Shown one piece after another: positions 7,975 through 55,193 of a DNA stretch of 64,000 bases (within the stretch, counting starts at the first letter, position 1; every line of letters starts with the position of its first letter). The stretch spans positions 124,001 to 188,000 of the forward strand of contig NZ_BSTT01000010.1 of the NCBI RefSeq assembly GCF_030269685.1, given 5' to 3'. The stretch is from Actinomycetospora sp. NBRC 106378 (GTDB taxonomy: Bacteria; Actinomycetota; Actinomycetes; Mycobacteriales; Pseudonocardiaceae). The position numbers were made by a program, and so were the translations under genes. The notes under the pieces were generated by a model. The model ran no database searches. It was not told the DNA's origin and saw only the letters and a list, made by a program, of their open reading frames with translations.

Positions 7975-9180
7975 GTGAAGGTGCTCCTGCTCGAGAACAT
8001 CCACCCGACCGCTGCCGAGGCGTTCCGCCGCGCCGGACTCGAGGTCGACGTCCGGCCCGGGTCCCTGTCCGGTCCGGAGCTCGTCGACGCGCTCGCGGGG
8101 GTGTCCCTGCTCGGGATCCGCTCCAACACCACCGTCACCGCCGAGGTCCTCGACGCGGGCACGGACCTGCTCGCGGTCGGCTGCTTCTGCATCGGGACCA
8201 ACCAGGTCGACCTCGCCGCGGCCGCCGAGCGCGGGATCGCGGTGTTCAACGCGCCGTTCTCCAACACGCGCAGCGTCGTCGAGCTCGTCCTCGGCGAGAT
8301 CATCGCGCTCGCCCGGCGGCTCCCCGAGAAGACGCAGCGGATGCACGAGGGGGTCTGGGACAAGTCGGCGAAGGGCAGTCACGAGATCCGGCGCCGGACG
8401 CTCGGCATCGTCGGCTACGGCAACATCGGCACGCAGCTGTCGAACGTCGCCGAGGCGGTGGGCCTGCGCGTGATCTTCTTCGACACGGCCGACCGGCTCG
8501 CGCACGGCAACGCGACCCGCGTCGGCTCGCTGGAGGAGCTGCTCGCCGAGGCCGACGTGGTCAGCCTCCACGTCGACGGCCGCCCGGGGAACGCGGGCCT
8601 GTTCGGCGCCGAGCAGTTCGCCGCGATGAAGCCGCGGTCGATCTTCATCAACGCCTCGCGCGGCATGGTCGTCGACTACGAGGCGCTGCGCGAGAACATC
8701 CTGTCCGGCCACGTCGCGGGCGCGGCCATCGACGTGTTCCCGGTCGAGCCGAAGGCCCAGGGCGACGCGTTCGAGTCGCCGTTGCGGGGGCTCGACAACG
8801 TCATCCTCACCCCGCACGTCGGCGGCTCGACCGCCGAGGCGCAGGAGGAGATCGGGCACTTCGTGTCCACCAAGCTCCTGGGCTTCGTGGGTGGCGGGTC
8901 GACGGCGCTGTCGGTCAACCTCCCCGAGGTCATGCCGCCGAATCCGCCCGGCGCCTACCGCATGGGCTACCTGCACTCCAGCGAGCCGGGCGTCCTGGCG
9001 GGCCTGAACAAGCTGCTCGCGGACAGCGGCGCCAACGTGATCGGACAGGCGCTGTCGACGCGTGGCGAGCAGGGCTACGTCGTCACCGACACCGACAAGC
9101 CGCTGGCCGAGCAGGTGCTGACCGAGCTCGAGCGCGCGCCGCAGACCCTGTGGCTGCGGTTCTGGGAGCCTCAGGTCTGA
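7975..9180 (+). CDS. serA: D-3-phosphoglycerate dehydrogenase (ACT-domain form)
   Basis: First step of serine synthesis: 3-phosphoglycerate to 3-phosphohydroxypyruvate with NAD. The 401-residue protein has the Rossmann motif GYGNIGTQ, the catalytic Arg in NASRGMVVD, Glu in the [10 protein letters not shown] loop and His in LTPHVGGST, and a C-terminal ACT domain ([22 protein letters not shown]) that in the family senses serine. This is the 410-residue E. coli type rather than the longer mycobacterial type. I chose GTG 7975 because family members begin at KVLLLENIH; upstream residues are Arg-rich non-homologous sequence and a -10 element sits there. Confidence 0.93.
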
Positions 9181-11036
9181 GACGACCCGCGCGCAGCGGC
9201 CTCCATCGCCTCCAGCTCGGCGATGAGGGTCGCCGCGTCGTGCGGGCCCTCGAGGCGCCGCGGAGTCCGGCCGGCGACCCCGAGGAAGAAGGTCGGGGTG
9301 CCCGGCAGTTCGCTGGTCCGGGCGTCGATCTCGTCGTCGGCGACGCGGTTGGTCGGGTCGCCGTCGCGCAGGTCGTCCTCGAGGCGCTGCGGATCGAGGC
9401 CGAGCGCGTCGGCGTGGGCGTAGAGGCTGTCGCGGTCGAGGGCGTCGGCATGGGCGAAGAAGTGGTCGTGCGCCTCCCAGAAGCGCCCCTGTTCGCCGGC
9501 GGCCTCGGCGAACTCGGCGGCCTGCCGGGCGTCGGGGTGGTACTCCTCGAGCGGGAAGTGCCGGAAGACGTAGCGCAACCGGTCGCCGAAGTGCTCCCGG
9601 ACCTGCCGGATACCGCCCGTGGCCTTGCCGCAGAAGGGGCATTCGAAGTCGGCGTACTCGACGAGCGTCAGTGGCGCGTCGACCGGACCGCGGATGTGGT
9701 CGCGGGCCGGGTCGACCGGCCGCAGGAGGTCGAGCGACGGGCCCTCGGGCTGCGGGGCCGCCTTGAACACGGTCGCGCCCAGGACGAGCGCGAGCGCCGA
9801 CGCGGCCAGCACGCCGATCCGGGCCTGGTCGGCGAGCTCGGGCTGGTCGGCCAGCGCGAGGTCGACGATGAACAGCGAGATCGTGAACCCGATCCCGGAG
9901 AGCGCCGCCCCGCCGGCGACCTGCGGCATCGTCAGGCCCGGTGGCAGCTTCCGCCGCAGCAGCGCGGTCGCCCCGCTGATCCCGAGGAACTTCCCGACGA
10001 CGAGGCCGAGCACCACCCCCCAGGTCAGGGGTGAGGTCGCCGCGGCCGCCAGCGTCGGGCCGTCGAGCGCGACGCCCGCGTTGGCCAGCGCGAACAGCGG
10101 CACGATGATGAACGCCGTGTACGGCTGGTAGAGCCGCATGAGGCGCTCGTTGACGCTCACCGCCCGGTCGAGCCCCAGGCGGGCCGTCCGCGCGTACTCG
10201 GGGTTGGGTGACTGCCGGAACCGCCGCGTCAGCTCCGCGGCGCGCTCCACCTCGCTGCGCTTCGGCGGGTAGACCGGCAGCAGCAGCGCGATCAGCACCC
10301 CGGCCAACGTCGCGTGCACGCCCGACTCGTGCAGCGCCACCCACGTCACCAGCGAGACGACCAGGTAGCCCCCACCCCGCCACACCTGCAGCCGCCGTAG
10401 CTGCCAGACCGCGACGAGCCCGACGATCGCGACCAGCAGCGGGATCCAGTGCAGCTCGTCGGTGTAGACGAGCGCGATGATCGCCAGTGCCCCGACGTCG
10501 TCGGCGACCGCGAGGGTCAGCAGGAAGATGCGCAGCCGCTCCGCCCGCCCGGGTCCGACCACCGCCAGCGCTCCCAGCAGGAACGCCGTGTCGGTGGAGA
10601 TGACGACACCCCACGCGGAGGCGGCCGGCCCCGACGGGTTGAGCAGCAGGAACAGCACCGCGGGCAGGGCGAGCCCGGCGATCGCCGCGGCGAGGGGGAC
10701 CATCGCCTGCGACCGGTCGCGGAGCTCGCCGATCGCGAGTTCCCGCTTCACCTCGAGGCCGATGACGAAGAAGAACAGGGCCATCAGGCCGTCGTTGACC
10801 CAGTGCTGCAGGTCGAGGTCGATGCCCGCCCCGGCGATCGAGATCGCGATATGGCCGTGCCAGAACACGTCGTAGGTCCAGGCCCACGGCGAGTTGGCCC
10901 AGATCAGCGCCAGCAGGGTCGCCACCAGCAGGAACACCGCGGCGAGCGTCTCCGACGAGTCTCCCCGTCGGGCCTCGGCGATGCGCTCGAGGACGCCGTG
11001 GAACCGGCCGGGGCCGCGGAGCGTGGTGTCGGTCAT
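9171..11036 (-). CDS. nhaA: NhaA Na+/H+ antiporter fused to DsbA-like thioredoxin domain
   Basis: A 621-residue fusion. Residues about 1-420 are an NhaA-type antiporter with many membrane segments and the conserved Asp pair in [19 protein letters not shown]. Residues about 430-621 are a DsbA/thioredoxin-like domain with an active-site CPFC (C466-C469) and a following cis-Pro-type segment ([11 protein letters not shown]). The antiporter would exchange Na+ for H+ across the membrane; the redox domain could form or isomerise disulfides. The fused architecture is known in actinobacteria. It ends with a 10-base convergent overlap with serA and begins with an ATG. Confidence 0.92.
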
Positions 11037-13635: not shown

Positions 13636-14148
13636 TCAGGTGAAGACGTCCCAGCAGAGACGGTTGCGCCGCTGCTGGTCGGACAGCACGAGGTCGCGAA
13701 CCGGCTCCGGCAGCTGCGCCCGTTGCCACGCGCACTCCGCAGCCCCGGCCTCGCCGGCCTGCGCAGCCGGCACCGACGCCCGGACGGCCTTGATCGCGTA
13801 GGCGGCCGCGCCGAGGTCGTGCTCCGCCACGTGCGCCACGGCCCCCGCCTGGCCCGCCGCGTAGGCGGCGAACCGTGCTGCGCCGCGCAGGTCCCGGGCC
13901 GCCCCCATCGCGTGTCCGCCCGCGGCGCGCGACGCCATCATCCGCATCTCGCCCCGCACCCACGCGCGGATCGCCTCGATGGCCTGCCGCGGACGCTCGT
14001 CGTCCGGCCGCTCCGCCTCGAAGAGGTCCAGCACGTGCTCCGCACACAAGGCGGCCCAGAGCGCGAGCCGGTGGTGGTCGTCGTCGGTCAGGGACCCGCC
14101 GCGCCGGATCGTGACGAGCCGGGGATCGCGGTCGGACGAGAGGATCAC
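13636..14148 (-). CDS. Putative Imm-5-like immunity/helical protein
   Basis: A helical 170-residue protein with LWAALCAEHVLDLFEAERPDDERPRQAIEAIRAW, resembling a widespread actinobacterial family annotated as putative immunity protein (sometimes mislabelled exonuclease SbcC). I cannot verify the family here. The start is chosen as GTG 14148, preceded by GGAG 6 bases upstream; an upstream ATG at 14313 would run through the divergent reductase gene. It converges on the HNH gene with 7 bases between stops. No toxin gene is adjacent. Confidence 0.6.
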   Translation of the reverse strand: MILSSDRDPRLVTIRRGGSLTDDDHHRLALWAALCAEHVLDLFEAERPDDERPRQAIEAIRAWVRGEMRMMASRAAGGHAMGAARDLRGAARFAAYAAGQAGAVAHVAEHDLGAAAYAIKAVRASVPAAQAGEAGAAECAWQRAQLPEPVRDLVLSDQQRRNRLCWDVFT

Positions 14149-14224
14149 GAGCTTCTCCGCCCAGCCATGTCGAAAGCCGCCGTCCTCGTTCGACGTCGGG
14201 GTGTCACCACCCGAGGAGGACATC

Positions 14225-14788
14225 ATGCACATCGTCGTCACCGCCTTCACCAGCCTCGACGGCGTCGTCCAGGCGCCCGGCGGCCCGGACGAGGACCGCG
14301 ACGGCGGCTTCACGCACGGCGGGTGGTCGATGCCCTACTTCGACCCCGAGGTGATGGGCGCGGCGTGGACCGACGTCATCGGCGGAGCGGACGCGATGCT
14401 GTTCGGGCGGCGCACCTGGGAGGTGTCGGGCCCGGCCTGGAGCGCCCAGGCCGGCGACCCGTTCGCCGACCGGCTCAACGGTCTCCCGAAGTACGTCGCC
14501 AGCCGGACCCTGACCGACGCGGGCGCCTGGGCGAACTCGACCGTCCTCACCGACCTGGGGGAGCTGCCGGAGGGCGACGGGCGCCTCGTCGTCATGGGGA
14601 GCGCGTCCGTCGTGCGGGAGCTGGTCGACGCCGACCTGGTCGACGAGTACCGGCTGATGATCGAGCCGGTCCTGCTCGGCGGCGGGAAGTCGATCTTCCC
14701 GCAGCACGGGAACAGCCGGGGGCTCGCGCTCGTCGAGGCCACGACGGCGGCGACCGGCACGCTCGTCTGCACCTACCGCAGGGGCTGA
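14225..14788 (+). CDS. RibD C-terminal/dihydrofolate-reductase-like reductase
   Basis: 187-residue protein of the RibD-C/DHFR-like fold: N-terminal VVTAFTSLDGVVQAPGG, central MLFGRRTWE, and C-terminal VVMGSASVVRELV with YRLMIEPVLLGGGKSIF. Members reduce pteridine or pyrimidine-like compounds with NADPH, but many are uncharacterised. The ATG at 14225 has a strong GAGGAGGA 4 bases upstream. It converges with the phosphatase (16-base overlap of 3' ends). Whether it belongs functionally with the pterin-like operon on the other strand is open. Confidence 0.85.
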   Translation: MHIVVTAFTSLDGVVQAPGGPDEDRDGGFTHGGWSMPYFDPEVMGAAWTDVIGGADAMLFGRRTWEVSGPAWSAQAGDPFADRLNGLPKYVASRTLTDAGAWANSTVLTDLGELPEGDGRLVVMGSASVVRELVDADLVDEYRLMIEPVLLGGGKSIFPQHGNSRGLALVEATTAATGTLVCTYRRG

Positions 14789-15363
14789 AGGGCGACGGCG
14801 TGGGCGGCGTGGTCGTTGAAGGCGAGCAGGCGAGGGGCGCTGCCGGAGGTGTCGATCCGGCACACCGCCGCGTCCTCGACCCACATCCGCCACGCCACCT
14901 CGTCGCCCACTCCGAGCGCCCACGCGATGGCCGCCTTGATCGGGGACACGTGGCTCACCACCATCACGTCCTCCACCGCCGCGTCCGCCGCGAGGTCGGT
15001 GCAGGCGGCCCGGACCCGCTCGCCCACGGTCGCCACTGACTCCCCGCCCGCGGGGACATGGTGCGGGTCGTCGCGCCAGGCCTGCCACCCGGCGGGGTCC
15101 AGCGCGGAGGCGGGGCAGCCGTCGAGGGAGCCGTAGTCCATCTCGATCCACCGGTCGTCGATCTCCGCCGGCACCCCGAACTGCGCCGCCGTCTGTCGGG
15201 CCCGGATCAGCGGGCTGCAGACCAGCCGGGCCGGCCGGGGCAGCCCCCGCGCGAGCACGGTCGCCTGCTCGATCCCCGACCCGCACAACGGCGGGTCGGC
15301 GCGCCCGAGCAGCAGGCCGTGGCGGTTCGCCTCCGTCTGGCCGTGGCGTACGAGGGTGAGCAT
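14773..15363 (-). CDS. Histidine phosphatase family protein
   Basis: 196-residue phosphoglycerate-mutase-like phosphatase. The catalytic motif LVRHGQTEANRHGLLLG is at the N-terminus, the second Arg in CSPLIRARQTA, an acidic IEMDYGSLDG segment, and the second catalytic His in VVSHVSP. Such proteins hydrolyse phosphate esters, commonly small metabolites. It is the last gene of the minus-strand operon, starting 5 bases after the stop of the membrane-protein gene, so it probably removes a phosphate in that pathway. The substrate is unknown. Confidence 0.85.
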   Translation of the reverse strand: MLTLVRHGQTEANRHGLLLGRADPPLCGSGIEQATVLARGLPRPARLVCSPLIRARQTAAQFGVPAEIDDRWIEMDYGSLDGCPASALDPAGWQAWRDDPHHVPAGGESVATVGERVRAACTDLAADAAVEDVMVVSHVSPIKAAIAWALGVGDEVAWRMWVEDAAVCRIDTSGSAPRLLAFNDHAAHAVALQPLR

Positions 15364-15368
15364 CGGCG

Positions 15369-16322
15369 TCACGCTACTGACGCGCGGCGGGCCCGGGACG
15401 GGAGCAGAGTGGAGTTGGGCGGCCCGGCGGCGTCCCGCTCCGCCGGTCGGGTCAGCGCGACTCGGCCGAGCAGGAGCACCCCGAGACCGGGTGCGCACGA
15501 CACGAGCGCCAGCACTCCGTAGGTCACCGCCGCCGCCAGCCCGGTCGCCGCGCCCAGCCCCGCCGCACCGAACGCCGCCGCCATCACGGCCTCGCGCGGG
15601 CCCCAGCCGCCGACGTTGAGCGGCAGCCCCATGGCCAGGAGGGCGAGCGCGAGCAGGGGCAGCAGCACCTCGACCGGCGCCACGGGCCCGGCGGCCACCG
15701 CCAGCAGCGCCAGGTGCCCCGCCGTCGCGACCACCGAGCACACGACGACGCCGGGTCCGGTCCCGCGGCGGAACAGCCCGGCCCGCAGGTCCGTCACGAC
15801 CGACGACAGAGCGCCCCGGCGACGCACCACCGGCGCCACCGCGAGGGCCACCGCCGCGACCACGGCGAGCACCCACAGCACCGTCACCGGGTCCACCAGG
15901 TCCCGGACCGGTCCGGGCACGACGACGAGCACCACCGCGCACGTCGCGACCACCACCACCTGTCCCGCGACCCGCTCCATCACCACCGCCCGGACCCCGC
16001 GCGCCACGTCGGCGTTGCGGCGGCCGTGCTCGACGGCGCGGTGCACGTCCCCGAGCACGCCCGCCGGGAGCACCGAGTTGAGGAACTGCGCGCGGTAGCA
16101 GTCGGCCAGCGCCCGGGAGAAGCCCAGGTGCAGCCCCACCCCGCGCGCGACCAGGCACCAGCGGGCGGCAGCCGCAGCCGTCGTCAGCAACCCGATCCCG
16201 AGCGCCGCCGCCACCGCGCCCGGCGACACGGCGCGGAGCCCGTCGAGGACCGCGCCCGTGCCCAGGTGCACGACGACCGCACCCACGAGCAGCGCGCCCA
16301 CCAGCAGCTTCACCGTTCTCAC
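15369..16322 (-). CDS. LPG synthase-type (UPF0104/AglD-like) membrane protein
   Basis: 317-residue integral membrane protein with about seven to eight hydrophobic segments, related to the transmembrane (flippase-like) domain of lysylphosphatidylglycerol synthase. Seen: the family segment RAQFLNSVLPAGVLGDVHRAVEHGR, ARGVRAVVMERVAGQ, and PLNVGGWGPREAVMAAAFG. It has no cytosolic synthetase domain. Relatives often sit with glycosyltransferases and are thought to move or bind lipid-linked molecules. It starts with GTG overlapping the methyltransferase stop by 4 bases. Confidence 0.85.
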   Translation of the reverse strand: MRTVKLLVGALLVGAVVVHLGTGAVLDGLRAVSPGAVAAALGIGLLTTAAAAARWCLVARGVGLHLGFSRALADCYRAQFLNSVLPAGVLGDVHRAVEHGRRNADVARGVRAVVMERVAGQVVVVATCAVVLVVVPGPVRDLVDPVTVLWVLAVVAAVALAVAPVVRRRGALSSVVTDLRAGLFRRGTGPGVVVCSVVATAGHLALLAVAAGPVAPVEVLLPLLALALLAMGLPLNVGGWGPREAVMAAAFGAAGLGAATGLAAAVTYGVLALVSCAPGLGVLLLGRVALTRPAERDAAGPPNSTLLPSRARRASVA

Positions 16323-17092
16323 CGCGGCAGCCCCAGGACGTCGACGTGACCCACCTCGACCGCGAAGGGAGCCTCCAGCCGCCGTGCGAGGTACCCGTCG
16401 ACGTCGAGCACCGGGTCCTGCTCGGCGGCCGCGTCCAGCCACCCCCGCAGCCACTCCTCGGCCAGCGGGCGGCTCCCGGCGCTCCCGCCCGCGAGCCGCC
16501 ACGGCGACGTCTCCCGCCGCACGGCGTACCCGGCCCGGGCGAGCGCGTCCGCCGCGAGGTCGGGCGCGTCCGGGCCCGCGAGCCCGCCCCGGCGCTGGTG
16601 GGCGTCGAAGGCCGCGGCGATCGGCGCGTCCCCGGGGTCGGCCGGGTCGAAGCGCACCCGCCCCGACACCGACAGCGTCCACAGCACCGCCGCCCCGGCC
16701 GCGGCGCAGTCGCGGGCGAGCGTCTCGATCTCCGTCGCGGTGAGCAGGTCGAGCAGGGCCGAGCAGACGACCACGTCGGTCCCGGTCGGGTCGACGTCCG
16801 CCAGGTTCCCGACGACGGGTGTGGCCGGGACGGGCAGCGCGGCGGCGGCCCGGCGGGCCAGGTCGGCGTCCCGGTCGTGCACGAACCACTGCTGGGGCGC
16901 CCGCAGTCGCGGCGCGAGCCACCGGCCCATCGAGCCGGTGCCACAGCCCAGGTCGCGGACCACCACGGTGTCGCGCACCCCGAGCCGCTCGTCCAGCGCG
17001 GCCGCGAGCGTCTCCGACCGGGCCGCGTGATCGGCGGGCTCGCGTAGGGCGAGCCAGTCCGGGGTGCAGACGGGGGAGCCCGGCTCGCTCAG
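16319..17092 (-). CDS. Class I SAM-dependent methyltransferase
   Basis: About 257 residues. The SAM-binding motif VVRDLGCGTGSMGRW and a following acidic-residue strand (WFVHDRDADLARRA) identify a class I methyltransferase; the acceptor is unknown. The start is uncertain. ATG 17197 or GTG 17155 would overlap the glycosyltransferase by 67-109 bases with non-conserved residues. A CTG at 17092 overlaps the glycosyltransferase stop as CTGA, places the start 10 residues before the TPDWLALREPADHAARS segment, and matches the 4-base coupling used by its neighbours; I use it as the inferred start. Confidence 0.8.
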   Translation of the reverse strand: MSEPGSPVCTPDWLALREPADHAARSETLAAALDERLGVRDTVVVRDLGCGTGSMGRWLAPRLRAPQQWFVHDRDADLARRAAAALPVPATPVVGNLADVDPTGTDVVVCSALLDLLTATEIETLARDCAAAGAAVLWTLSVSGRVRFDPADPGDAPIAAAFDAHQRRGGLAGPDAPDLAADALARAGYAVRRETSPWRLAGGSAGSRPLAEEWLRGWLDAAAEQDPVLDVDGYLARRLEAPFAVEVGHVDVLGLPR

Positions 17093-18114
17093 GCGAGCGC
17101 GGGCCCGAGAGCCGGGCCGAGAGCCAGGCGCAGTCGCTGCACGGTCGTGGTCCACGGGGGCAGCGTGCCCCGGCGCGCGGACGCTGAGACTCTCCACCCG
17201 CTTCGCCGTACCGGGTCCACCAGCCAGTGCCGCACGGCTCCGGCGAGCGCACCAATGTTCTCAGCAGGTACTAAGCGGGTGGGCCCGGCCTCCCGGATTC
17301 CTCCGACGTCGGCGGCGAGCACGGGGACGCCCCGGGCGAGCGCCTCGGTCACCACCATCCCGAACGTCTCGGTCCGCGACGGCACCACGAGCAGGTCCGT
17401 CGTCGCCCACACCGCGTCGAGCGCCGCACCGACCCTCGGGCCGGCCACGGACACCCGGTCCGCCAACCCGGCCGCCACGACCTGCGCCCGCAGCCGGACC
17501 ACGAACCCCGGGTCCCGCTCCACGGGCCCGACCAGCGCACAGGTCCAGTCCCGGTCGCGCACCGCACCGAGCGCGTCGACCAGCAGGTCCTGGCCCTTCG
17601 TCGGCGTGAGCGCTCCCAGGCACAGCAGACGCGGCCGCCCGCCGCCGACCAGCGAGCCCGGCGCCACACAGGCCGGATCCACCCCCGGCGGCGCCACGAC
17701 CACCCGCGCCGGGTCGACGTCGAAGTCCTGCACGAGCCGCCGCGCGGTCCACCGGCTCGTCGTCGCCACCGCCGTCGTGTGGCGCAGGGCCGCGGTCTCG
17801 AGGGCGTGCAGTTCCCGGCACCGTGTGGGGGAGAGCCCGCGCTCGTCGGCCAACGGCAGGTGGACCAGCGGCACGATCCGCAGCCGGTGCGCGTGTGGCG
17901 CGAGCACCTCCGGGGCGCGACCGCCGACGAGCCCGTCGACCAGCACCGACCCGCCGTCGGGAACGTCGCGCAGCGTCGCCGCCAGCGCCGCGACGTCCCC
18001 GACCGGAACCCGCCGCTCGCCCCACCCGGAGACCTGCAGGACCCGGCGGTCGTAGACGTTCCCGCCGCTCGGCACGGCGTCGATGTCGTCCGGGACGACG
18101 ACCTCCACGCTCAC
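17089..18114 (-). CDS. Family 4 glycosyltransferase
   Basis: 341-residue GT-B glycosyltransferase of the GT4 type. The C-terminal donor-binding domain has [44 protein letters not shown] (the ExFG-type E...E motif) and [12 protein letters not shown]. It should transfer a sugar from a nucleotide sugar to an unknown acceptor in the cytoplasm. Its GTG start overlaps the stop of the PTPS-like gene as GTGA, so it is coupled to it. Confidence 0.88.
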
Positions 18115-18509
18115 AGGGACCGTTCGTACCCCGCCCGCGCGACGTGCGACTCGTGCAGCTCCACCGCGACCGTCGCGATCGCCCGTGCGCCCTCGCCGAG
18201 GTCGCCGGCGTGGATCCCGGCCGCGAGCCGGTCGGCGACCACCCGGGCCAGGAACTCCGTCGTCGTGTTCTCGCCGGCGAACGCCTCGACCTCGTCGAGG
18301 TTGCGGTAGCGCAGGTCCTCGAGGGCCGTGCCGAGCGCGGCGGTGGCGAGGCCGATGTCGACGACGATGTTGTCCGCGTCGAGCTCGGGACGCCGGAAGG
18401 TGGCGTCGACGACGAAGGTCGCGCCGTGCAGCGCCTGCGCCGGACCGAACACCTCGCCGCGGAAGCTGTGGGCGACCATCACGTGGTCGCGGACGGTCAC
18501 CGAGAACAT
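18111..18509 (-). CDS. 6-pyruvoyl-tetrahydropterin synthase/QueD-like, altered active site
   Basis: 132-residue PTPS/QueD-fold protein. It keeps the N-terminal AHSF His (H14), HGA at 28-30, an IVVDIGxxxAAL strand, and the C-terminal [10 protein letters not shown] element with the substrate-anchoring Glu. True PTPS/QueD enzymes bind zinc with three His (one plus HxH) and use a Cys and a LDH-type Asp/His pair. Here HxH is H28-G-A30, the LDH position reads LRY, and the protein has no Cys at all. It is therefore a diverged member of unknown reaction. The ATG overlaps the dehydrogenase stop (TGATG) and has GGGAGG upstream. Confidence 0.8.
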
Positions 18510-19513
18510 CAGCTGCCTCCCGGGGCGAGCGGAGCGACGGGAGAGGGACCGTAGTCGACGCGCACCGCGAGACCGGGCGCCCCGGCGGCCAGGCGCGCCA
18601 TGGTGTCGGGCAACGCCTCGAACGGCACGGTCCCGGTGATGAGTGCCTCGAAGCGGTCGTCGGCGAGCAGGTCGAGCGCGAGGGCCATCCGGTCCGCGTA
18701 CGTCCGGCGCGCTCGACGGGCGCCCGCGACCATCCCGACCTGGCTCGACCGCACCGCCAGCCGCCCCGCGTGGAACCCCTCGCCGAGCGGGACCGATACC
18801 TCCCGGTCGCCGTACCAGGACATCTCGATCACCTCGCCCTCGACGCCCAGCAGCTCGAGCGACCGCGCGAGGCCGGCGGCCGTCGCGCTGGTGTGGAAGA
18901 CGAGGTCGCAGTCCCCGAGTGCCGACTCCGGGGACGCGAACCCCACCCCCAGCGTCGCGGCCACCTCCGCCCGGGAGGGGTCGACGTCGACCAGCTGCAC
19001 CCGCGCCCCGGCCAGCGACGCGAGCAGGGCCGCGACCGAGCAGCCCACCATCCCGGCCCCGACCACGGCGACCCGGTCGCCGATCCGCGGTCCCGCGTCC
19101 CACAGCGCGTTCACCGCGGTCTCGACCGTGCCCGCCAGGACCGACCGCCCCGTCGGCACCGCCTCCGGCACCACCGACACCGCGGACGCCGGCACCACGA
19201 ACCGCGTCTGGTGCGGGTGCAGGCAGAACACGTCACGCCCGACCAGCGGCGCGGGACCCTCCTCCACCACCCCGACCGCGAGGTAGCCGGAGCTGACCGG
19301 CCCCGGGACGTCGCCCACCTGGAACGGCGCCCGCATCCGCTCCGCCTGCCCCGCCGGCACCCCGCCGCGGTGGACGAGCAGCTCCGTCCCGCGGCTGATC
19401 GCCGACCAGCGGGTCCGCACCACCACGTCGTCGGGACCCGGGTCCGGCAGCTCGACGTCGACGACCGCGCTCTCGCCAGGACGGAGCACCCGGAAGCTGC
19501 GGGCGGAGTACAG
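18509..19513 (-). CDS. Zinc-type medium-chain alcohol dehydrogenase-like protein
   Basis: About 334 residues, MDR superfamily: N-terminal GroES-like domain ([32 protein letters not shown]) and a Rossmann domain ([19 protein letters not shown]). It resembles the BchC/threonine-dehydrogenase-like group rather than classic zinc ADH, and the usual CxxGHE catalytic triad is not visible. The first gene of the six-gene operon. Start: a CTG at 19513 has GGAGG 6 bases upstream and begins at the family N-terminus (YSARSFRVL); the nearest standard start is GTG 19540, leaving only 23 bases to the divergent gene. I infer CTG. Confidence 0.8.
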
Positions 19514-19524
19514 GGAGTTCCTCC

Positions 19525-19561
19525 AGCACGATCGGGGCACGGCCTCGGGGAGGATCGTGCT
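19525..19561. promoter_or_regulatory. 9-bp inverted repeat in the divergent intergenic gap
   Basis: AGCACGATC (19525-19533) and GATCGTGCT (19553-19561) form a perfect dyad with a 19-base spacer, filling most of the 50 bases between the divergent dehydrogenase and CDP-alcohol phosphotransferase starts. It could be an operator controlling both directions or an RNA hairpin over both ribosome binding sites. No regulator gene is adjacent. Confidence 0.5.
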
Positions 19562-19563
19562 CC

Positions 19564-21927
19564 ATGGCCGCTCCGGACGCGACCCCCGAGCCACCCTCGC
19601 GGGCCCTGCATCCCCCGCTCGTCCTCCAGCTCACGACGGCGGGTGTGGTCGGGTCGGGCCTGCTCGCCGGCCTCGTCACGACGACGGGCCTCGGTGGCGT
19701 CGGGCTGTCCGGCGGCCTGCTCGTGCTGGTCCTCTCGACGGCGCTCCTGGCGCGCACCGGGGCGTCCTCCCTCGGGCCCGCCGGCTCCGTGACGCTGCTG
19801 CGGCTCGTCCTCGTCGCCGGCGTCGCCGCCCTGGCCGTGCATCACCTGTCCGGGCGGCCGATCCCGACCGCCGTGCTCGTCGGGCTCACCGTGGCCGCCC
19901 TCGCGCTCGACGCGGTCGACGGGTGGATCGCACGCCGGACGGACACCTCCACCGACCTGGGTGCCCGGTTCGACATGGAGACCGACGCGTTCCTGCTGCT
20001 CCTGCTCGCGGTGCACGTCGCGGCCGACCTCGGCCCGTGGGTGCTGCTCGTCGGCGGGATGCGCTACCTGTTCGTCGCGGCCGGCTGGATCTGGCCGTGG
20101 CTGCGCGGCGAGCTCCCACCCCGGTACTCCGCGAAGGTCGTCGCCGCCCTGCAGGGCATCGCGCTCGTCGTCGCGAGCACGCGGCTGCTGCCCGGCTGGG
20201 CGAACGCCGCGCTGGTCGGGACGGCGCTCGTCGCGCTGGTGTGGTCGTTCGGGGTGTCGGTCGAGCACCTCGCCCGGGCGCCGCGGACGGCCCGGCCGCC
20301 CGCACCCGACGTCGGGAGGGACCTGTCGTGGTGGCGCGGGCTCGCGACCGGACTCGCGGTGCTGGTGCTCGCCGTCGTGCTCGTGGCCCCACGCGACCCG
20401 TCGGCCCTGGTCTGGGGCTCCTACCTGCGGCTCCCGGTCGAGGGGATCGCCGGGCTCGCGCTCCTGCTGCTCCTGCCGGCGCGGTGGCGACGACCGCTCG
20501 CGCTGGTCGCCGGCGTCGCGCTGGGGCTCGGCGCGGTGTTCACCGCGTTCGACGTCGGGTTCGTCTCGGTGCTCGCGCGCCCGTTCGACCCGGTGCTCGA
20601 CAGCCCGCTGGTCGCCGACGGCGTGGGCTTCGTCGGCTCGACCTACGGGGCGACCGCCGAGGTCGCGGCGATCGTCGGGGCGGTGGTGCTCGCGGTCGTC
20701 CTGGTCGGCGGGCTGGGGCTCGCCGCCCGGCGGGTCGTCGGCGCGGCGTCACGGCACCCGCGCGGGTCGATGCGGGTGCTGGCCGCGCTCGGCGGGGTGT
20801 GGCTGGTGGGTGCGGTCGCCGGACTCACCGCCGCCCCCGGCGTGCCGGTCGCGGCGGCGACCACGGCGGCCGCGACCGTGGACCGCGCCGACCGGATGCG
20901 GACGGCGTTCGCCGACGCCGCGCGCTTCCGCGCCGAGTCGGGTCGCGACGCCTGGGCCGCGACACCCGGTCCCGACCTGCTCGGCGCGCTGCGCGGCAAG
21001 GACGTCGTCGTCGCGGTGGTGGAGAGCTACGGACGCTCCGCACTGGCCGACCCCGGTCTCGCCGCGACCGTCACCCCTGCGCTCGACGCCGGCCAGGCCC
21101 GTCTGGACGGTGCGGGCTACGGCGTGCGCAGCGGGTTCCTGACGTCGAGCGTGGTCGGCTCGGGCAGCTGGCTCGCGCACGCGACGCTGCTCTCGGGACT
21201 GCGTGTGGACAACCAGCAGCGCTACCTGACGCTGACCTCGTCGGACCGGTTCACGCTCTCCGGCGCCTTCGCCCGCGCCGGATGGGAGACGGTCGCGGTC
21301 CAGCCCGGCACCACCCGCGCCTGGCCGGAGGGGCGGTTCTACGGCTACCAGCGGGCGTACTCGGCGCACGACCTCGGCTACCGCGGACCGTCCTTCGGCT
21401 GGGCGTCGATGCCCGACCAGGTCGTCCTCGACCGGCTCTCGCGTCTCGAGCTCGACCGGGCCGACCGGGGGCCCGTCATGGCCGAGGTGGACCTCGTGTC
21501 GAGCCACGCGCCGTGGACCCCGGTGCCGCGGATGGTGGACTGGGGCGCGATCGGGGACGGATCGGAGTTCGACGCCCAGGCCGTGCCCGGTGCCGTCGGG
21601 CGCAGCGACGCGCAGGTGCGCGCCGACTACGCCGGCTCGGTGGCCTACACGATGGACGCCCTCACCTCGTGGGTGCAGCGGTCGGCGGACCCGAACCTCG
21701 TCGTCATCGCCGTCGGCGACCACCAGCCCGCCCTCACCGTCACCGGGCCCGGTGCCGGTCGGGACGTGCCGGTGTCGGTGCTGAGCCGCGACCCGGCGGT
21801 GCTCAACCGCATCGGGTCGTGGGGTTTCACGTCGGGGCTGCGCCCGGCCGCCGACGCCCCGACCTGGCCGATGGAGGCCTTCCGCGACCGGTTCCTCGGC
21901 GCCTTCTCCGGCCCGCCGACGCAGTGA
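19564..21927 (+). CDS. CDP-alcohol phosphatidyltransferase fused to sulfatase/LTA-synthase-like domain
   Basis: 787-residue membrane fusion. Residues about 20-230 are a CDP-alcohol phosphatidyltransferase with the complete catalytic signature D116xxD119G120xxA123R124...G133xxxD137xxxD141. A second hydrophobic region (about 255-450) leads to a C-terminal alkaline-phosphatase-superfamily domain (about 470-770) with VVESYGR at 486-491, a long SSHAPW-type acidic/His region and GDH at 718-720, like the phosphoglycerol-transferase (LTA synthase) group. The N-domain should join a phosphatidyl group from CDP-diacylglycerol to an alcohol; the C-domain may transfer or hydrolyse a phospho group outside the cell. 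Divergent from the dehydrogenase operon. Confidence 0.85.
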   Translation: MAAPDATPEPPSRALHPPLVLQLTTAGVVGSGLLAGLVTTTGLGGVGLSGGLLVLVLSTALLARTGASSLGPAGSVTLLRLVLVAGVAALAVHHLSGRPIPTAVLVGLTVAALALDAVDGWIARRTDTSTDLGARFDMETDAFLLLLLAVHVAADLGPWVLLVGGMRYLFVAAGWIWPWLRGELPPRYSAKVVAALQGIALVVASTRLLPGWANAALVGTALVALVWSFGVSVEHLARAPRTARPPAPDVGRDLSWWRGLATGLAVLVLAVVLVAPRDPSALVWGSYLRLPVEGIAGLALLLLLPARWRRPLALVAGVALGLGAVFTAFDVGFVSVLARPFDPVLDSPLVADGVGFVGSTYGATAEVAAIVGAVVLAVVLVGGLGLAARRVVGAASRHPRGSMRVLAALGGVWLVGAVAGLTAAPGVPVAAATTAAATVDRADRMRTAFADAARFRAESGRDAWAATPGPDLLGALRGKDVVVAVVESYGRSALADPGLAATVTPALDAGQARLDGAGYGVRSGFLTSSVVGSGSWLAHATLLSGLRVDNQQRYLTLTSSDRFTLSGAFARAGWETVAVQPGTTRAWPEGRFYGYQRAYSAHDLGYRGPSFGWASMPDQVVLDRLSRLELDRADRGPVMAEVDLVSSHAPWTPVPRMVDWGAIGDGSEFDAQAVPGAVGRSDAQVRADYAGSVAYTMDALTSWVQRSADPNLVVIAVGDHQPALTVTGPGAGRDVPVSVLSRDPAVLNRIGSWGFTSGLRPAADAPTWPMEAFRDRFLGAFSGPPTQ

Positions 21928-54446: not shown

Positions 54447-55193
54447 TCACTCGAACGGACTAACGGTGTACCGCAGCAGGAGCCCGTCGTCGTGGGCGAG
54501 GGCCGAGGTCAGCCGCAACGGGAGCGGGGCGGGCAGCTCGGGACCGGCGACGATGCGACCCGGCCCCGCGCCCACCAGCTGCGGGGCGACCGACAGGCAC
54601 AGCTCGTCGACCAGCCCGGCCGCGGCGAAGGACCCGAAGAGCCCCGGGCCCCCCTCGCAGAGCACCCGGGGCAGTCCCCGGGCCGCCAGCGAGTCGAGGA
54701 CCGCGGCGGGGGAGAGGTCACCCGCGTCGAGGACCTCGGCCAGCCCGGCGTACCGCTCCCGTGCCGCCGGGGCGGCCGTCGCAGTGGTGACCACCAGCGG
54801 GGGGACCGCCGTGTCGGTGAACAGCGCCGCGTCCGGCTCGAGCGCGGGGGTCGCGGTGACCACCGCGACCGGCGGCACCGCGGCCTGCCCCCGCGCCCGC
54901 CGCCGGGCCCGGGCGGCCTCGGAGGTGCGGGCGCCGCGGTAGTCCTCCGCCCGGACCGTCCCCGAGCCCGCCAGGATCACGTCGGACAGCTCCCGGAGCA
55001 CCCCGAACAACGTCCGGTCGCCCGGGGCGTCGAGGCCGGTGGACCGGCCGTCGACGCTGACCGCGCCGTCGGCGCTCGCCGCGAAGTTCACGCGGACGAA
55101 CGGCCGCGGGCCCGCCGGGTGGGCGTAGAGCTCCGTGAGGGCCGCCCGGTCGAGCTCGCCCGCCGGACCACCCGGGGGCCAGACGTGCCTCAC
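54447..55193 (-). CDS. RibD C-terminal-type pyrimidine reductase
   Basis: 248-residue RibD-C domain protein: RVNFAASADGAVSVDGRSTGL, VILAGSGTVRAEDYRGAR, PRVLCEGGPGLFGSFAAAGLVDELCLSVAPQLVGAG. The NADPH-binding and substrate elements of the riboflavin-pathway reductase are present, but stand-alone actinobacterial copies of this kind are often not in riboflavin operons, and their substrate is unclear. GTG start overlaps the DUF3072 stop (GTGA), so it is coupled to it. Confidence 0.85.
   Translation of the reverse strand: MRHVWPPGGPAGELDRAALTELYAHPAGPRPFVRVNFAASADGAVSVDGRSTGLDAPGDRTLFGVLRELSDVILAGSGTVRAEDYRGARTSEAARARRRARGQAAVPPVAVVTATPALEPDAALFTDTAVPPLVVTTATAAPAARERYAGLAEVLDAGDLSPAAVLDSLAARGLPRVLCEGGPGLFGSFAAAGLVDELCLSVAPQLVGAGPGRIVAGPELPAPLPLRLTSALAHDDGLLLRYTVSPFE

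What the first reader, a model, noticed from the sequence alone, without database searches (positions are those of the whole stretch)
14773..21927. Undescribed pterin-like/glycolipid biosynthetic unit
Six minus-strand genes (dehydrogenase, PTPS-like, GT4, methyltransferase, LPG-synthase-type membrane protein, histidine phosphatase) are joined by 1-4 base overlaps or a 5-base gap, and face a divergent CDP-alcohol phosphotransferase-sulfatase fusion across 50 bases. The set implies synthesis, methylation and glycosylation of a small molecule that is linked to a lipid or exported. No known pathway has this combination. A RibD-like reductase (14225) sits at its end. I recall similar sets in other actinobacteria but cannot check here.
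Basis: partly seen in the sequence, partly recalled or inferred. Interest (0 to 1): 0.75.

Follow-up and report, generated by a model that had tools for sequence, protein, structure and literature searches.

The report
Conserved actinobacterial pterin-like glycolipid pathway
The window holds the late part of a widely conserved but uncharacterised actinobacterial pathway that probably turns an early riboflavin-type intermediate made from GTP into a sugar-bearing, methylated and possibly lipid-linked pterin-like molecule.

Summary
The gene set is real and is a conserved unit, not chance neighbours. In an even draw of 394 genomes of the class, 64 carry this PTPS-like protein. All 64 have the dehydrogenase upstream (within 0.5 kb in 62) and GT4 next downstream, same strand; 56 have the methyltransferase, 56 the flippase-like protein, 56 the CDP-alcohol phosphotransferase.

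Relatives add what the window lacks: a GTP cyclohydrolase II (RibA) with a creatininase-family protein and/or a Rib7-like reductase. RibA without the switch Tyr sits with the creatininase in 90 of 91 loci, RibA with Tyr in 0 of 21. A Tyr-less RibA (SCO6655) stops at a formylated intermediate (recalled), and a creatininase-family enzyme can deformylate it (PMC9478397). A cluster-borne reductase occurs in 34 of 36 genomes with a deaminase-first RibD and in 0 of 44 without. Both patterns point to an un-deaminated ribityl-diaminopyrimidine precursor, but rest on few independent changes.

The product is unknown.

The parts
18509..19540 (-). MDR-type dehydrogenase (ADH), weakly BchC-like; start GTG 19540 likely, not proven; no classical zinc-ligand motif seen by eye (motif recalled)
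   Evidence: upstream of PTPS on the same strand in 64 of 64 class genomes
18111..18509 (-). SCO6650-type PTPS-like T-fold protein; pterin-anchor Glu kept, catalytic Cys/His and third Zn His lost
   Evidence: only PF01242 protein found in its genome
17089..18114 (-). GT4 glycosyltransferase; best PDB matches 3c4q/3c48 and a D-inositol 3-phosphate glycosyltransferase (MshA type; identity of 3c48 recalled)
   Evidence: next gene after PTPS in 64 of 64 class genomes
16319..17092 (-). SAM-dependent methyltransferase (MT); start uncertain, perhaps CTG 17092
   Evidence: model pLDDT 92; 56 of 64 class genomes
15369..16322 (-). flippase-like / MprF-type membrane protein
   Evidence: 56 of 64 class genomes
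14773..15363 (-). histidine phosphatase, CobC-like; accessory, found right after the membrane protein also in L044, L061, L099
19564..21927 (+). fusion of a CDP-alcohol phosphatidyltransferase (CDP) with an LtaP/LtaS-like domain (annotated Sulfatase, SULF)
   Evidence: CDP in 56 and SULF in 15 of 64 class genomes

Best explanation
The locus is the late part of a conserved actinobacterial pathway that branches from the first steps of riboflavin synthesis. Early part (genes seen in relatives, inferred for this genome): GTP is opened to 2,5-diamino-6-ribosylamino-4-pyrimidinone 5'-phosphate (DARoPP), either by a Tyr-type RibA alone or by a Tyr-less RibA that stops at the formylated intermediate plus a creatininase-family formamidase. 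A Rib7-like reductase then gives the ribityl compound with its 2-amino group still on. That reductase is borne by the cluster, or shared with a reductase-first RibD as in this genome. Late part (in the window): the T-fold protein and the dehydrogenase turn this precursor into a pterin-like headgroup; GT4 adds a sugar; the methyltransferase methylates. The CDP-alcohol phosphotransferase joins the polyol phosphate to a phosphatidyl group, the flippase-like protein moves it across the membrane, and the LtaP-like domain transfers a phospho-alcohol group. Shown: families, linkage, catalytic-residue patterns and the two gene-swap patterns. Inferred: every substrate and the order of the late steps.
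For: Linkage: in 64 of 64 class genomes ADH lies upstream and GT4 downstream of PTPS on its strand; within 8.5 kb MT 56, membrane protein 56, CDP 56, RibA 51, creatininase 41, Rib7-like reductase 19, LtaP-like 15. In family f19 of the phylum, 18 of 18 loci have ADH-PTPS-GT4 and 17 of 18 also the reductase in front (the 18th locus ends there). RibA switch: 112 loci, 91 without Tyr of which 90 have the creatininase, 21 with Tyr of which none has it and all 21 have the reductase; in the 44 loci fetched after I had formed the idea: 34 of 35 and 0 of 9. Reductase logic: 80 genomes, 34 with cluster reductase and deaminase-first RibD, 44 with neither, 2 with such a RibD and no cluster reductase, 0 the other way; without the 22 genomes that gave me the idea: 18, 38, 2, 0. 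Cluster reductase of L080 nearest to 5xux, 6p8c, 2azn. Creatininase-family BrbF deformylates the RibA intermediate (PMC9478397, passages). Lipid part: intact CDP-alcohol motif; only PDB profile match of the 'sulfatase' is lipoteichoic acid primase 4uop, E 4.8e-5.
Against: On a tree of 139 loci the RibA trait needs only 4 changes and the reductase trait 7; supported independent pairs number 1 and 4 (for the second: 3 same way, 0 opposite, 1 no difference), too few for a sign test, so shared ancestry could explain much of both patterns. One locus (L223) has a Tyr-less RibA and no creatininase within 8.5 kb; three (L045, L046, L181) have the creatininase and no RibA seen (L045 is cut by its contig). 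Four class genomes (G008, G621, G683, G731) show only ADH-PTPS-GT4, two of them on short or cut stretches. The window genome has no cluster RibA, creatininase or reductase; its Rib7-like reductase is fused to a deaminase and is probably its riboflavin RibD. Solitary PTPS copies without any partner gene occur in 5 of 80 named loci. L080-type reductases also occur in 46 of 330 class genomes without the cluster. Lipid attachment rests on domain content only.
Confidence: 0.58

Rival explanations
1. Split GTP cyclohydrolase I: RibA and the creatininase make DARoPP, and the T-fold protein closes the pterin ring on the ribosyl compound, giving dihydroneopterin phosphate. The reductase would then act on a dihydropterin, and the rest decorates an ordinary pterin.
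For: T-fold enzymes bind pterins (recalled) and the anchor Glu is kept in 144 of 144; RibD_C proteins share the DHFR fold (recalled).
Against: The cluster reductase is nearest to Rib7-type pyrimidine reductases, and its presence follows the type of riboflavin RibD, which a dihydropterin reductase would not explain.
Confidence: 0.17
2. Two independent modules that happen to sit together: a soluble pterin-like glycoside pathway, and a membrane phosphoglycerol or lipid module (CDP, flippase-like, LtaP-like) acting on an unrelated glycolipid.
For: Four class genomes show only ADH-PTPS-GT4; in the five f19 loci read in full no CDP, flippase-like or LtaP-like gene was found by profile. The LtaP-like gene is present in only 15 of 64.
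Against: CDP and the flippase-like protein are each within 8.5 kb in 56 of 64 class genomes, in several gene orders.
Confidence: 0.2
3. Chance neighbourhood of unrelated housekeeping genes.
For: Most of the families are common on their own.
Against: 64 of 64 linkage in the class draw, and conservation in f19.
Confidence: 0.01
4. 7-Deazapurine, queuosine or biopterin route using a true PTPS/QueD.
For: PF01242 match.
Against: QueD model score 30 bits against a cut-off of 89; the Cys position is Ala in 144 of 144 and the His position is not His in the 142 of 144 whose residue was listed. I did not search the genome for QueE, QueC or FolE.
Confidence: 0.03

Closest known systems
SCO6650 of Streptomyces coelicolor (PDB 3d7j) and the genes up to SCO6655
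   Same: Same PTPS-like family (191 bits). The Streptomyces locus L056 has the order PTPS-GT4-MT-membrane protein-creatininase-RibA, which fits the numbering SCO6650 to SCO6655 (inference; the S. coelicolor record itself was not read).
   Different: The window has no creatininase or RibA in the cluster, has an added phosphatase, and has the CDP and LtaP-like parts fused. That SCO6650 lacks zinc and the triad, and that SCO6655 makes the formylated product through a Met/Tyr switch, is recalled, not read here.
First steps of riboflavin synthesis (RibA, ArfA/ArfB, BrbF, Rib7/ArfC)
   Same: RibA, creatininase-family and Rib7-like reductase families in relatives.
   Different: The cluster reductases that I scanned with Pfam carry no deaminase domain (L037, and L075 and L111 of the divergent kind), and the genes are linked instead to PTPS-like, GT4, methyltransferase and lipid enzymes.
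Mycofactocin (glycosylated redox cofactor with the creatininase-family enzyme MftE)
   Same: Creatininase-family protein and a glycosyltransferase; the L068 cluster creatininase scores 132 bits on MftE, below its cut-off of 172.
   Different: Starts from GTP chemistry by inference; a precursor peptide or radical SAM enzyme was not searched for.
Lipoteichoic acid primase/synthase (4uop)
   Same: Only PDB match of the 'sulfatase' profile (E 4.8e-5 for the whole chain, best domain 0.0085); Glu, Thr and Asp-His positions kept in 9 sequences.
   Different: Weak match; fused here to a CDP-alcohol phosphatidyltransferase.

Membership tests
6-pyruvoyl-tetrahydropterin synthase / QueD (active enzyme) | Catalytic Cys (CxxxHGH or CxxxxxHGH) | tested here: not met
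   Position 24 is Ala in 144 of 144 (two duplicate loci included); alignment; motif wording from passages of PMC5041015
6-pyruvoyl-tetrahydropterin synthase / QueD (active enzyme) | Three zinc-binding histidines | tested here: not met
   H14 and H28 in 144 of 144, third position Ala in 143 and Val in 1; which residues bind Zn is recalled
6-pyruvoyl-tetrahydropterin synthase / QueD (active enzyme) | Pterin-anchoring glutamate | tested here: met
   E120 in 144 of 144; role recalled
SCO6650-type PTPS-like cluster | PTPS with ADH upstream and GT4 downstream on the same strand | tested here: met
   64 of 64 class genomes including the window; ADH 1.4 kb away in G593 and 6.7 kb in G678
SCO6650-type PTPS-like cluster | Linked RibA with creatininase or Rib7-like reductase | tested here: not met
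   Absent near the window cluster. The genome's best RibA is a RibAB-type frame with Tyr, and its Rib7-like reductase is unlinked and fused to a deaminase. Linked RibA is present in 51 of 64 class genomes, so it is usual rather than required
CDP-alcohol phosphatidyltransferase | D..DG..AR........G...D...D motif | tested here: met
   Read in the window sequence; its columns largely conserved in 92 sequences; motif recalled
Sulfatase | C/S-x-P-x-R formylglycine motif | tested here: not met
   Conserved segment reads G.GSW.AH.T..SG instead; motif recalled
GTP cyclohydrolase II (relatives) | Zinc cysteines | tested here: met
   Pattern found in 113 of 113; role recalled
Lipid-linked product | Chemical identity of the product | not testable with these tools
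   Needs lipidomics

The most novel reading that the evidence does not exclude
The cluster makes a so far unknown membrane-anchored ribityl-pterin cofactor or lipid: an N8-ribityl pterin built from the un-deaminated riboflavin precursor by a T-fold protein that has lost its zinc site, then glycosylated, methylated, joined to a phosphatidyl group and flipped outward. It would be made widely in mycelial actinobacteria around aerial growth and sporulation.
Probability: 0.33. Interest if true: 0.92.

Novelty: new variant of a known kind. Interest (0 to 1): 0.72.

Why it matters
SCO6650 has a solved structure deposited as an uncharacterized protein. The gene-swap patterns give it a concrete substrate hypothesis and tie it to the odd GTP cyclohydrolase SCO6655. 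If right, many Streptomyces, Micromonospora, Amycolatopsis, Pseudonocardia, Actinomadura and related species make an undescribed pterin- or pyrimidine-based glycolipid, perhaps a redox cofactor at the membrane, and a route that leaves riboflavin synthesis before deamination becomes directly testable in one laboratory strain.

Tried and rejected
Rejected: the RibD-like gene at 14225 as pathway reductase (26 bits, opposite strand). Rejected: a dedicated second GTP cyclohydrolase in the window genome; the second PF00925 match (C6:74799) covers model positions 5-89 only and looks like a degenerate RibAB-type frame. Rejected: my own first reading that the unlinked Rib7-like reductase of the window genome is dedicated to the pathway; it carries a C-terminal deaminase and is probably the riboflavin RibD, which led to the better test. 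Another RibD_C gene in the window at 54447-55193 stands apart and was not tied to the pathway. Alignment A1 used wrong strands for three loci and was dropped for A2. Literature searches for SCO6650, SCO 6650, SCO6655, neighbouring locus tags and combined terms found no paper in the held library whose listing or passages describe this cluster. Of the work recalled from the Bandarian laboratory, the 2006 paper (PMC3227873) is not held; for two others I tried DOIs from memory, which may be wrong, and found nothing. An author-name search found 312 papers; the 40 listed were off topic. The methyltransferase profile had no PDB match at 0.001.
Full report
WHAT IS IN THE WINDOW. On the minus strand between 19540 and 14773 six genes follow each other with overlaps of 1 to 4 bases or a 5-base gap: an MDR dehydrogenase (ADH), a PTPS-like protein, a GT4 glycosyltransferase, a methyltransferase (MT), a flippase/MprF-like membrane protein and a CobC-like histidine phosphatase. 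The MT and ADH starts are uncertain. Divergently, 19564-21927 codes for a CDP-alcohol phosphatidyltransferase fused to a domain that Pfam calls Sulfatase. The window is G000:C10:124001-188000 of a 6.3 Mb genome in 52 contigs, and the PTPS-like gene is the only PF01242 match in it. The nearest named relative is Actinomycetospora chiangmaiensis (L044), with the same order and 83-89% protein identity over the six genes and the fusion.

CONSERVATION. The histidine phosphatase matched in 7, but only in L044, L061 and L099 right after the membrane protein; the other four matches are about 29-35% identical and farther away. Two flanking frames tried as controls matched in 1 locus each. Of the 6 loci without ADH one (L042) is cut by its contig end and five (L079, L087, L094, L098, L114) are solitary PTPS copies in Streptomyces. 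These 80 loci were the best-scoring ones, so an even draw was made as well: 394 genomes of the class, 64 with the protein at E <= 1e-20, one locus each. ADH lies upstream and GT4 downstream on the same strand in 64 of 64; ADH is within 0.5 kb in 62, 1.4 kb away in G593 and 6.7 kb in G678, and GT4 is within 0.3 kb in all. Within 8.5 kb, MT occurs in 56, membrane protein 56, CDP 56, RibA 51, creatininase 41, Rib7-like reductase 19, LtaP-like 15, phosphatase 3; 52 of 64 have all five of ADH, GT4, MT, membrane protein and CDP, and four (G008, G621, G683, G731) show only ADH and GT4. In family f19 of the phylum the PTPS-like protein is 34-40% identical; of the 20 weaker loci first fetched, all 18 from f19 have ADH-PTPS-GT4 and 17 the reductase in front, while the two others (f29, f49) are QueD-like by their CxxxHGH motif and have none of these. 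In the one f19 locus where I scanned it (L192), the gene after GT4 is a methyltransferase.

THE PTPS-LIKE PROTEIN IS PROBABLY NOT A PTPS. Its only PDB match by sequence at 0.001 is SCO6650 (3d7j, 191 bits). In 144 loci of this type two histidines are invariant, the third zinc position is Ala (143) or Val (1), the Cys position is Ala (144), the residue after the invariant Leu-Asp, where the catalytic His is expected, is Asp, Asn, Glu, Ser or Gly in the 142 listed, and the anchor Glu is kept in 144. The f19 relatives keep the HGH histidines but not the Cys. The roles of these residues are recalled. The QueD model scores 30 bits against a cut-off of 89.

WHAT RELATIVES ADD: THE FIRST STEPS. Next to the cluster many relatives carry RibA (GTP cyclohydrolase II), with a creatininase-family protein, a Rib7-like RibD_C reductase, or in one Streptomyces-type group both; in two Pseudonocardia loci (L058, L061) RibA and reductase are one protein. 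I read the RibA residue that aligns with a Met of the Streptomyces protein, because I recalled that SCO6655 makes only the formylated intermediate owing to a Met where other GTP cyclohydrolases II have Tyr (Spoonamore et al. 2006; seen here only as a reference-list entry and one sentence in PMC3509567). In 112 loci with RibA, 91 lack Tyr (68 Met, 13 His, 7 Leu, 3 Gln) and 90 of them have the creatininase (exception L223); 21 have Tyr, none has the creatininase and all have the reductase. With one duplicate removed it is 89 of 90 and 0 of 21. In the 44 loci fetched after I had the idea it is 34 of 35 and 0 of 9. Three loci (L045, L046, L181) have the creatininase without a RibA in the stretch; nine have the reductase without RibA; 21, the window among them, have none of the three, in part because the stretch is cut. 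A creatininase-family enzyme, BrbF, deformylates this intermediate to DARoPP in Sinorhizobium (PMC9478397, passages). So the cluster carries a likely deformylase nearly only where its RibA is expected to need one. The window genome's RibAB has Tyr. That Met, His, Leu and Gln all have the effect known for Met is an assumption.

THE REDUCTASE PATTERN. The L080 cluster reductase is nearest to 5xux (112 bits), 6p8c and 2azn; that these reduce the diaminopyrimidine before deamination is by name for 6p8c and recalled for 5xux. The window genome (C6:162190-163185) and a Streptomyces have instead an unlinked RibD of reversed order, reductase then deaminase, with a Rib7-like reductase. In 35 CREA-type or similar genomes, the 8 with a divergent in-cluster reductase have no match above 81 bits to the L080 reductase; of the other 27, L096 has it in its cluster, 25 have an unlinked one at 120 bits or more, and L072 has none. 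(22 genomes) then suggested that cluster reductases go with a deaminase-first RibD, and one search tested it in 80 genomes, those 22 included: 34 have both, 44 neither, 2 have a deaminase-first RibD without cluster reductase (G008, with only ADH-PTPS-GT4, and G790), 0 the other way; the 58 fresh genomes give 18, 38, 2, 0. Deaminase-first means a match over the cut-off of TIGR00326; in G404, G508 and G790 it covers only part of the model. Three of the 34 are f19 genomes whose cluster status comes. The simplest reading is that the pathway needs the reduced but un-deaminated compound: it shares the housekeeping reductase where that one is Rib7-like and brings its own where the RibD deaminates first.

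HOW STRONG IS THIS. Such tables ignore kinship. On an ADH+PTPS tree of 139 loci the RibA trait changes at least 4 times and the reductase trait 7 times. Supported independent pairs number 1 and 4; for the reductase 3 go the expected way, 0 the other, 1 does not differ; neither can reach significance. Presence of an L080-type reductase anywhere in the genome also goes with the cluster (53 of 64 with, 46 of 330 without), again without correction for kinship.

THE MEMBRANE PART. The CDP-alcohol motif is intact in the window and largely conserved in 92 sequences. The 'sulfatase' domain lacks a C/S-x-P-x-R motif and keeps Glu (VVES), Thr (AHATLLSG) and Asp-His (GDHQ); its profile hits one PDB entry up to E 1, lipoteichoic acid primase 4uop, at 4.8e-5 for the chain but 0.0085 for the best domain, and the single window sequence hits none at 0.01. 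Its model is moderate (pLDDT 79) and no fold search could be run. I read it as a phospho-alcohol transferase. GT4 is nearest to MshA-type enzymes, which act on a polyol phosphate, in keeping with a ribityl phosphate acceptor; this is weak evidence.

EXPRESSION. SCO6652, by counting from SCO6650 and SCO6655 the methyltransferase (inference), is given log2 ratios 0.8, 4.3 and 4.1 at 24, 48 (aerial) and 72 h (spores) over first mycelium (PMC3610822, passages). SCO6655 and SCO2687 are in a list of genes most of which are up-regulated in stationary phase (PMC2853524, passage).

VERDICT. The unit is widespread and I found no description of it in the library I could search. The start from GTP through an un-deaminated ribityl-diaminopyrimidine is the part of the chemistry the data support best; the lipid link and the late order are inference; the product is unknown.

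Noticed in passing
L079, L087, L094, L098, L114: Solitary SCO6650-type PTPS copies in Streptomyces, in a partly shared neighbourhood; in L087 it holds a pyridine-nucleotide disulphide oxidoreductase, GPP34-like, metallo-beta-lactamase-fold and MEKHLA genes. S. tendae has both this (L098) and the full cluster (L090).
   Followed up: partly
window 54447-55193: A RibD_C reductase next to a DUF3072 gene, one of several RibD_C-type proteins of this genome, 38% identical to the Micromonospora cluster reductase; role unknown.
   Followed up: partly
window genome C6:162190-163185 (L160:4190-5185): RibD with swapped domain order (reductase first, deaminase second); relatives of it in A. chiangmaiensis (L165) and a Streptomyces (L162).
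   Followed up: yes
window genome C6:74799-75062 (L003): A degenerate-looking RibAB-type reading frame next to a frame that looks like a flavin reductase (by eye); the GTP cyclohydrolase II part matches only half of the model.
   Followed up: no
window 13636-14313: Imm5-like putative immunity protein gene just beyond the cluster; no partner gene was looked for.
   Followed up: no
window 9171-11036: Na+/H+ antiporter fused to a thioredoxin/DsbA-like domain.
   Followed up: no
L058, L061: RibA and RibD_C fused in one protein in Pseudonocardia clusters.
   Followed up: partly
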